Assembly: GCA_002205965.3 (NCBI GenBank)
Contig: NADL03000010.1
Span: 558,001-622,000 of the forward strand
Length of the DNA: 64,000 nucleotides
Direction: 5' to 3'
From: Kappaphycus alvarezii
Lineage: Eukaryota > Rhodophyta > Florideophyceae > Gigartinales > Solieriaceae
The stretch's first letter is position 1. Each line of letters begins with the position of its first letter. Under the pieces are notes generated by a model that did no database searches, had not been told where the DNA came from, and worked only from the letters and a program-made list of their open reading frames with translations. Below are positions 42,074-42,193 of the stretch, piece by piece. The translations under genes were made by a program, and so were the position numbers.

Positions 42074-42178
42074 CTCTCGGTAGCTCAGTTGGTGTCAGCA
42101 CAACGCAGAGCATTCGACTGTAGTAGTCAAGCGATTTCAATCATCGAATTGTCCCTAGTTCGATTCTAGGTCGGGAGA
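42074..42178 (+). tRNA. tRNA-Tyr(GUA) with an anticodon intron and a 13-nt D-loop insertion
   Basis: The gene folds as a cloverleaf. Acceptor CTCTCGG (42074-42080) pairs with TCGGGAG (42171-42177), discriminator A at 42178. C1-G72 and A73 are the eukaryotic Tyr identity bases. D-stem GCTC (42083-42086) pairs with GAGC (42108-42111). Anticodon stem TTCGA (42113-42117) pairs with TCGAA (42144-42148); the loop is CTGTAG plus A42143, anticodon GTA at 42120-42122. The T-arm is CCTAG-TTCGATT-CTAGG (42154-42170). A 19-nt intron (42124-42142) sits at the canonical 37/38 site. In addition the D-loop holds 13 extra bases (about 42094-42106, GTCAGCACAACGC); removing them leaves a normal AGTTGGTA loop. 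Without both inserts the RNA is 73 nt. Extra D-loop introns are known in red algal nuclear tRNAs, so I read this as a second intron. Exact splice edges are inferred. Confidence 0.88.
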
Positions 42179-42189
42179 TGATCAAGAAA

Positions 42190-42193
42190 TTTT
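42190..42193 (+). terminator. possible Pol III terminator of tRNA-Tyr
   Basis: A run of four T's follows the tRNA by 11 bases, the usual place and kind of an RNA polymerase III stop. Confidence 0.5.

What the first reader, a model, noticed from the sequence alone, without database searches (positions are those of the whole stretch)
42074..42178. tRNA-Tyr gene with two separate insertions, one in the D-loop
Seen directly: a full cloverleaf with Tyr identity bases, a 19-nt insert at the canonical 37/38 site, and 13 extra bases (42094-42106) in the D-loop between complementary D-stem halves. Removing both gives a standard 73-nt tRNA with AGTTGGTA D-loop and CTGTAGA anticodon loop. Known: red algal nuclear tRNAs can have introns at non-canonical positions including the D-loop. 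Inference: this is a doubly interrupted tRNA, and the D-loop piece must be cut out by the splicing endonuclease or tolerated as an unusually long loop.
Basis: partly seen in the sequence, partly recalled or inferred. Interest (0 to 1): 0.82.

Follow-up and report, generated by a model that had tools for sequence, protein, structure and literature searches.

The report
Doubly interrupted red-algal tRNA-Tyr gene
The six nuclear tyrosine-tRNA genes found in this red-algal genome each carry the usual short intron plus a second 13-base piece in the D-loop that very probably has to be cut out, a kind of split tRNA gene reported before from tiny algae.

Summary
Only removal of both gives a 73-nt tRNA that ARAGORN calls Tyr; ARAGORN and Rfam's gathering threshold miss the gene. 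The genome (336 Mb) holds six such genes; no uninterrupted nuclear one was found. Across the six the 73 exon positions never vary, while the D-loop insert varies at 7 of 13 positions at constant length, and the 37/38 intron in sequence and length, 13-19 nt. A tRNA-Lys(UUU) pair carries 12 nt at the same site beside intronless Lys(UUU) genes. Genes for Sen2, Sen34, Sen54 and a probable Sen15 are present. Best reading: a functional tRNA with an ectopic D-loop intron cut by the tRNA-splicing endonuclease. The kind is known from Cyanidioschyzon merolae and the Guillardia nucleomorph; excision here is inferred, not shown. A bulge-helix-bulge can be drawn, but shuffled inserts fold as well. Assembly size points to Kappaphycus alvarezii.

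The parts
42074..42178 (+). tRNA-Tyr(GUA) gene, 105 nt with both inserts, 73 nt without
   Evidence: read directly; ARAGORN on the 73-nt form calls Tyr(GTA); five relatives in the genome
42074..42093 (+). exon 1 (positions 1-20: acceptor 5' strand, D-stem 5' strand, D-loop to T20)
   Evidence: identical in six of six copies
42094..42106 (+). 13-nt D-loop insert at 20/21, probable ectopic intron
   Evidence: constant length, 7 of 13 positions vary in six copies; 12-nt insert at the same site in tRNA-Lys(UUU)
42107..42123 (+). exon 2 (A21 to position 37: D-stem 3' strand, anticodon stem 5' strand, loop with GTA)
   Evidence: identical in six of six copies
42124..42142 (+). 19-nt canonical intron at 37/38
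   Evidence: 19, 19, 13, 13, 16, 16 nt in the six copies
42143..42178 (+). exon 3 (position 38 to A73)
   Evidence: identical in six of six copies; 29 nt of it occur six times in the genome with up to 3 mismatches allowed, all six exact
42081..42092 (+). A box TAGCTCAGTTGG, undisturbed because the insert lies just 3' of it
   Evidence: read directly; that it fits the A-box consensus is recalled
42157..42167 (+). B box AGTTCGATTCT
   Evidence: read directly; that it resembles the B-box consensus is recalled
42190..42193 (+). TTTT, possible Pol III terminator; runs of 4 to 8 T lie within about 30 nt after each of the six copies
   Evidence: read directly; flanks printed

Best explanation
A functional nuclear tRNA-Tyr gene with two introns. 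Pol III transcribes the whole gene through an undisturbed A box and B box (inferred). The pre-tRNA carries a 13-nt ectopic intron at 20/21: exon bases G15-G18 can pair with intron bases 8-11 (CAAC or CAGC), leaving G19-U20^N on the 5' side and two intron bases ^A21 on the 3' side, i.e. cuts after the second base of a 3-nt stretch as in a bulge-helix-bulge. The tRNA-splicing endonuclease (Sen2, Sen34, Sen54, probable Sen15) cuts it, a ligase joins U20 to A21, and the 37/38 intron is removed, probably afterwards as reported for C. merolae. The product is a standard 73-nt tRNA. Shown: gene structure, six-copy conservation, presence of endonuclease genes. Inferred: transcription, excision, enzyme, order.
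For: The six nuclear Tyr genes found all carry the insert and no uninterrupted one was found, so tyrosine decoding in the cytosol should depend on them. The 73 exon columns are invariant while 7 of 13 insert columns vary (Fisher p = 3e-7 taking columns as independent), and the 37/38 intron varies too. In other multi-copy tRNAs parsed, D-loops are identical between copies: Thr(AGT) 7 of 7, Asn 7 of 7, Trp 5 of 5, Arg(CCT) 4 of 4 (the parse admitted loops of at most 12 nt). Two Lys(UUU) genes have a 12-nt insert at the same site and otherwise match the intronless Lys(UUU) genes of the same two contigs except T17 to C. T runs follow all six Tyr genes. The Sen34, Sen2 and Sen54 frames match solved subunits of those names and Sen15 passes the Pfam cut-off. 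Excision of comparable introns is reported for the Guillardia nucleomorph (RT-PCR) and processing for C. merolae, as told in reviews PMC4090602 (passages and section 5) and PMC3978253 (passages and section 7).
Against: No RNA evidence. The D-arm with the insert is no more stable than with shuffled inserts (p 0.27-0.43) or random ones (p 0.18-0.33). The six Tyr copies show no change on both sides of the helix; with Lys added there is one, but 76 of 500 shuffles reach it and C17 also occurs in uninterrupted Lys(CUU) genes. The predicted fold extends the helix by G19:C26 and U20:G25 (or A25), which would bury the 5' cut site. In free folding of the whole gene five of six copies form this D-arm and one (C54) does not. 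The 37/38 intron arm folds weakly (-1.5 to -5.2 kcal/mol). The insert keeps its length in all six copies, unlike the 37/38 intron. The six copies are not independent: two pairs are 87-89% identical duplicates.
Confidence: 0.8

Rival explanations
1. The 13 bases stay in the mature tRNA as a 21-nt D-loop that folds into a small hairpin on the D-arm.
For: Constant insert length in six copies; the isolated D-arms of all six fold into one hairpin and that of tRNA-Lys into a similar one; every changed base of the helix still pairs in the six copies.
Against: The insert varies at 7 of 13 positions where the 73 other positions never vary. The predicted helix pairs G18 and G19, which mature tRNAs use for the contact with the T-loop (recalled). 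An intronless Lys(UUU) isoacceptor has the ordinary 8-nt D-loop.
Confidence: 0.09
2. The copies are tRNA pseudogenes or parts of a tRNA-derived repeat.
For: A review notes that D- or T-arm insertions in eukaryotes mostly sit in one of many synonymous genes and are supposed pseudogenes (PMC4090602, section 5). SINE-like tRNA-derived sequences and truncated tRNA-Lys pieces exist here.
Against: All six Tyr copies found have it, exons are identical, and no other nuclear Tyr gene was found. The six lie in four different flanking contexts, so the unit that is kept is the gene and not a longer repeat.
Confidence: 0.03
3. The D-loop piece is removed, but by a nuclease other than the splicing endonuclease.
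For: The bulge-helix-bulge is not distinctive; how very short non-canonical introns of the Guillardia nucleomorph are spliced is called unknown in PMC4090602 (section 5).
Against: Cut sites inferred from the mature sequence alone fall after the second base of a 3-nt stretch on both sides of a possible 4-bp helix in six of six copies (pairs counted), as the endonuclease rule asks; but one fixed register pairs by chance about 1 time in 16 (own estimate, wobble allowed), so this is weak.
Confidence: 0.08

Closest known systems
[quoted passage not shown] 2007, 2013; seen only through reviews PMC3978253 and PMC4090602)
   Same: Red alga, nuclear genes, introns outside 37/38 including the D-loop, several introns in one gene, bulge-helix-bulge proposed; a permuted Leu gene is broken at the same 20/21 site
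   Different: Here a 336-Mb genome, probably of a florideophyte seaweed; multi-copy genes all alike; a probable Sen15 gene present (reported as not found in C. merolae); excision not tested; permuted genes not looked for
Non-canonical introns in tRNA genes of the Guillardia theta nucleomorph (Kawach et al. 2005; via PMC4090602)
   Same: Short inserts (3-24 nt) in the D and T arms, sometimes with further introns in the gene, excision shown by RT-PCR
   Different: That is a reduced endosymbiont genome; here a free-living nuclear genome
Canonical 37/38 tRNA introns of eukaryotes
   Same: The second insert, 42124-42142, is one
   Different: Does not cover the D-loop insert

Membership tests
Eukaryotic tRNA genes with ectopic (non-37/38) introns | Removing the insert restores a canonical tRNA | tested here: met
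   ARAGORN on four forms of the window gene
Eukaryotic tRNA genes with ectopic (non-37/38) introns | Insert evolves unlike the mature body | tested here: met
   7 of 13 against 0 of 73 variable columns in six copies
Eukaryotic tRNA genes with ectopic (non-37/38) introns | Not a lone disrupted copy among intact ones | tested here: met
   six of six nuclear copies found, no uninterrupted one; that they are expressed is not shown
Eukaryotic tRNA genes with ectopic (non-37/38) introns | Bulge-helix-bulge or relaxed form at the junctions | tested here: inconclusive
   4-bp helix with a 3-nt 3' bulge can be drawn in six of six but shuffled inserts fold as well and there is no covariation
Eukaryotic tRNA genes with ectopic (non-37/38) introns | tRNA-splicing endonuclease encoded | tested here: met
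   Sen2, Sen34, Sen54 and a probable Sen15 (Sen15 has no PDB relative)
Eukaryotic tRNA genes with ectopic (non-37/38) introns | Excision seen in RNA | not testable with these tools
   no reads held

The most novel reading that the evidence does not exclude
The nuclear tRNA-Tyr of this alga keeps its 13 extra bases and works with a 21-nt, hairpin-bearing D-loop, so that the tRNA elbow is formed in a way not known (to my recollection) from nuclear tRNAs.
Probability: 0.08. Interest if true: 0.8.

Novelty: new member of a known kind. Interest (0 to 1): 0.45.

Why it matters
If excision is confirmed, it extends ectopic D-loop tRNA introns to a large-genome red alga, where a whole isoacceptor family would depend on removing two introns. 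It also bears on the suggestion in review PMC4090602 that the apparent lack of Sen15 in C. merolae may be related to such introns: here a probable Sen15 coexists with them. And the tRNA finders tried here (ARAGORN, Rfam at gathering score) missed or misnamed all six genes they were given or would cover, so tRNA-Tyr counts of such genomes may be wrong.

Tried and rejected
Rejected: lone pseudogene (six copies alike); longer tRNA-derived repeat (four different flanking contexts); plastid or bacterial origin (the only other Tyr gene met, on C556, is an 86-nt tRNA in a Thr-Gly-Tyr-Thr cluster that looks bacterial). Strong thermodynamic support for a bulge-helix-bulge was looked for and not found. 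The apparent compensatory change U17:A29 to C17:G29 in Lys was discounted because uninterrupted Lys(CUU) genes also have C17.

Census of other interrupted tRNAs: partial only. The gapped pattern covers A boxes of one form and gave 52 hits against 26 for the reversed control: six Tyr, two Lys, ten tRNA-like repeats, three of another tRNA-like kind, and C533 and C534; the other 29 were judged by eye or not followed. RF00005 scored 63 of 11601 first-look candidates, so it is not a full tRNA list. Of its 63 matches 60 lie in the 59 loci given to (three of the four C802 copies were not fetched); 55 loci were parsed and four not (L051, because of my own position filter, L069, L072, L073). The parse admitted D-loops of at most 12 nt, so it could not have shown further long D-loops. 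Mature sequences of other tRNAs are not always identical between copies (Thr(AGT) 3 distinct among 7, Asn 3 among 7, Trp 2 among 5); it is their D-loops that are.

The confidences of the best explanation and of the third rival were lowered (0.86 to 0.80, 0.10 to 0.08) on checking, only because the set summed to more than 1: both include removal of the insert.

Full report
What is there. Window 42074-42178 (+) is a tRNA-Tyr(GUA) gene. Its D-loop is 21 nt, AGTTGGT + 13 nt + A; its anticodon loop carries 19 nt at 37/38. Without both inserts the 73-nt sequence is called tRNA-Tyr(GUA) by ARAGORN; with the D-loop insert left in, no tRNA is called; with only the D-loop insert taken out, a wrong Leu(UAG) is called. 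The window scan by ARAGORN gives 0 genes and Rfam 0 matches at gathering score; in a relaxed search the tRNA model reaches 21 bits, below its cut-off of 29, starting inside the insert. With introns allowed, ARAGORN calls nothing for three of the six genomic copies and Arg, Ser and Ser for the other three.

The genome. The window lies in an assembly of 336,021,096 bases in 884 contigs. A review table, seen as a passage, lists Kappaphycus alvarezii at 336,721,358 bases, GCA_002205965 (PMC7073580); the near match of size, not an identity test, is my ground for the name. A light-harvesting protein of the genome has as best solved relative a chain of 7y5e, which I recall as the red alga Porphyridium; cryptophyte-type names follow. 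Some contigs look bacterial by their tRNAs.

Six genes. DNA search with the gene gives six places. A 29-nt piece of the last exon occurs six times, all exact, with up to 3 mismatches allowed: C10 (window), C54, C701, C762, C722, C515. All six have both inserts. A D-arm pattern with 8 to 30 free bases gave these six and three places that by eye are not tRNAs; reversed control 1. Exons: 73 of 73 columns invariant. D-loop insert: 13 nt in all six, 7 of 13 columns variable. 37/38 intron: 19, 19, 13, 13, 16, 16 nt. Fisher test of 7 of 13 against 0 of 73: p = 3e-7, treating columns as independent and ignoring that the copies are related. C10/C54 and C701/C762 are duplicates at 87-89% over their alignable flanks; apart from these two pairs no copies align beyond the gene's near neighbourhood except a 42-nt hit between C54 and C515, so there are four flanking contexts. 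Each copy is followed within about 30 nt by a run of 4 to 8 T.

Control within the genome. In multi-copy tRNAs parsed the D-loop is identical between copies: Thr(AGT) 7 of 7, Asn 7 of 7, Trp 5 of 5, Arg(CCT) 4 of 4, Lys(CTT) 7 of 8 (the eighth lies on C562, which looks bacterial). Limits: the parse admitted loops of at most 12 nt, took 59 loci holding 60 of the 63 matches, and failed on four. Other positions do differ between some copies (Thr 3 distinct sequences among 7, Asn 3 among 7). Still, a D-loop that differs between copies is not what the standard tRNAs parsed here show.

A second isoacceptor. Two identical tRNA-Lys(UUU) genes (C586, C600) have 12 nt inserted at the same 20/21 site and no anticodon intron; apart from T17 to C they equal the intronless Lys(UUU) genes on the same two contigs. 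A degraded, truncated copy on C715 also carries a similar insert, and a 3' fragment lies on C23. Other isotypes were screened only in part.

Structure. In all six Tyr genes G15-G18 can pair with insert bases 8-11, and the inferred cuts then fall after the second base of a 3-nt stretch on each side, as in the bulge-helix-bulge described in PMC3978253 (two 3-nt bulges separated by a 4-bp stem; passage; that the cut follows the second bulge base is recalled). In Lys three of these four pairs form. Against it: shuffled inserts fold as well in 27-43% of trials and random ones in 18-33%; the six copies show only one-sided changes; adding Lys gives one both-sided change that 76 of 500 shuffles also reach; RNAfold extends the helix over G19 and U20, which would hide the 5' cut; the 37/38 intron arms fold weakly; and of the six whole genes folded freely one, C54, does not form the D-arm. 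Sliding the helix by 1 to 3 columns lowers pairing from 100% to at most 67%, but the structure was drawn from these sequences. The fold is compatible with a bulge-helix-bulge and does not prove it.

Machinery. PF01974 gives five places over its cut-off: C5 (two), C697, C33, C782. The frame on C697 matches solved Sen34 chains and that on C33 solved Sen2 chains; the C5 and C782 places were only read as ORF lists for one C5 place and C782 and look like second copies. Sen54 N-domain: C608 and C645 over the cut-off, the C608 frame matches solved Sen54 chains. Sen15: one place, C530, 35 bits in the genome search and 33 in Pfam against a cut-off of 22, no PDB relative; probable only. That the best solved chains are human is recalled.

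Mechanism and rank of explanations. The simplest account is an ectopic intron removed by the splicing endonuclease. In C. merolae the 37/38 motif is always the last to be processed (PMC3978253 section 7); the same order is expected here. Retention as a long D-loop is not excluded without RNA data, but the varying insert and the pairing of G18 and G19 speak against it.

Known or new. Ectopic introns, D-loop ones included, are known in C. merolae and in the Guillardia nucleomorph; Soma et al. 2013 itself is not held and was seen only through reviews. Eight of my ten paper searches bore on tRNA introns in red algae; I noticed no report of such introns in a florideophyte nuclear genome among the papers they listed. 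That is a weak negative: the library is open-access papers only, most lists were capped (for example 20 of 686, 10 of 206), and I judged by titles and starts of abstracts. I file it as a new member of a known kind.

Noticed in passing
G000 C802 (305, 6010, 11709, 17404) and C388 (L051: 2431, 8130): tRNA-Thr(AGU) genes in tandem about every 5.7 kb; no rRNA family at gathering score in the 9.5 kb of C388 searched, so the unit is not a recognised rDNA repeat.
   Followed up: partly
L091, L094, L096, L097, L099, L102, L103, L092, L093, L101: Ten tRNA-like sequences with A-box- and B-box-like stretches and no good cloverleaf, several with a shared downstream stretch: probably tRNA-derived SINEs.
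   Followed up: partly
L090, L100, L104: Three near-identical tRNA-like sequences (TGGCCCAGAGGGG ... GGGTTCGAGTCC) without a convincing cloverleaf.
   Followed up: no
L109 (C23:169616-169669) and L110 (C715:752031-752076): Pieces of tRNA-Lys(UUU): one 3' piece beginning about at the D-stem, one 5' piece with a D-loop insert like that of the interrupted Lys genes.
   Followed up: partly
G000 C556, C581, C533, C571, C562: Contigs whose tRNAs look bacterial, possibly contamination of the assembly.
   Followed up: no
L071 (C41): tRNA with anticodon TCA, called tRNA-SeC by ARAGORN; of ordinary length, so it may instead be a UGA-reading Trp-like tRNA, perhaps of mitochondrial origin (inference).
   Followed up: no
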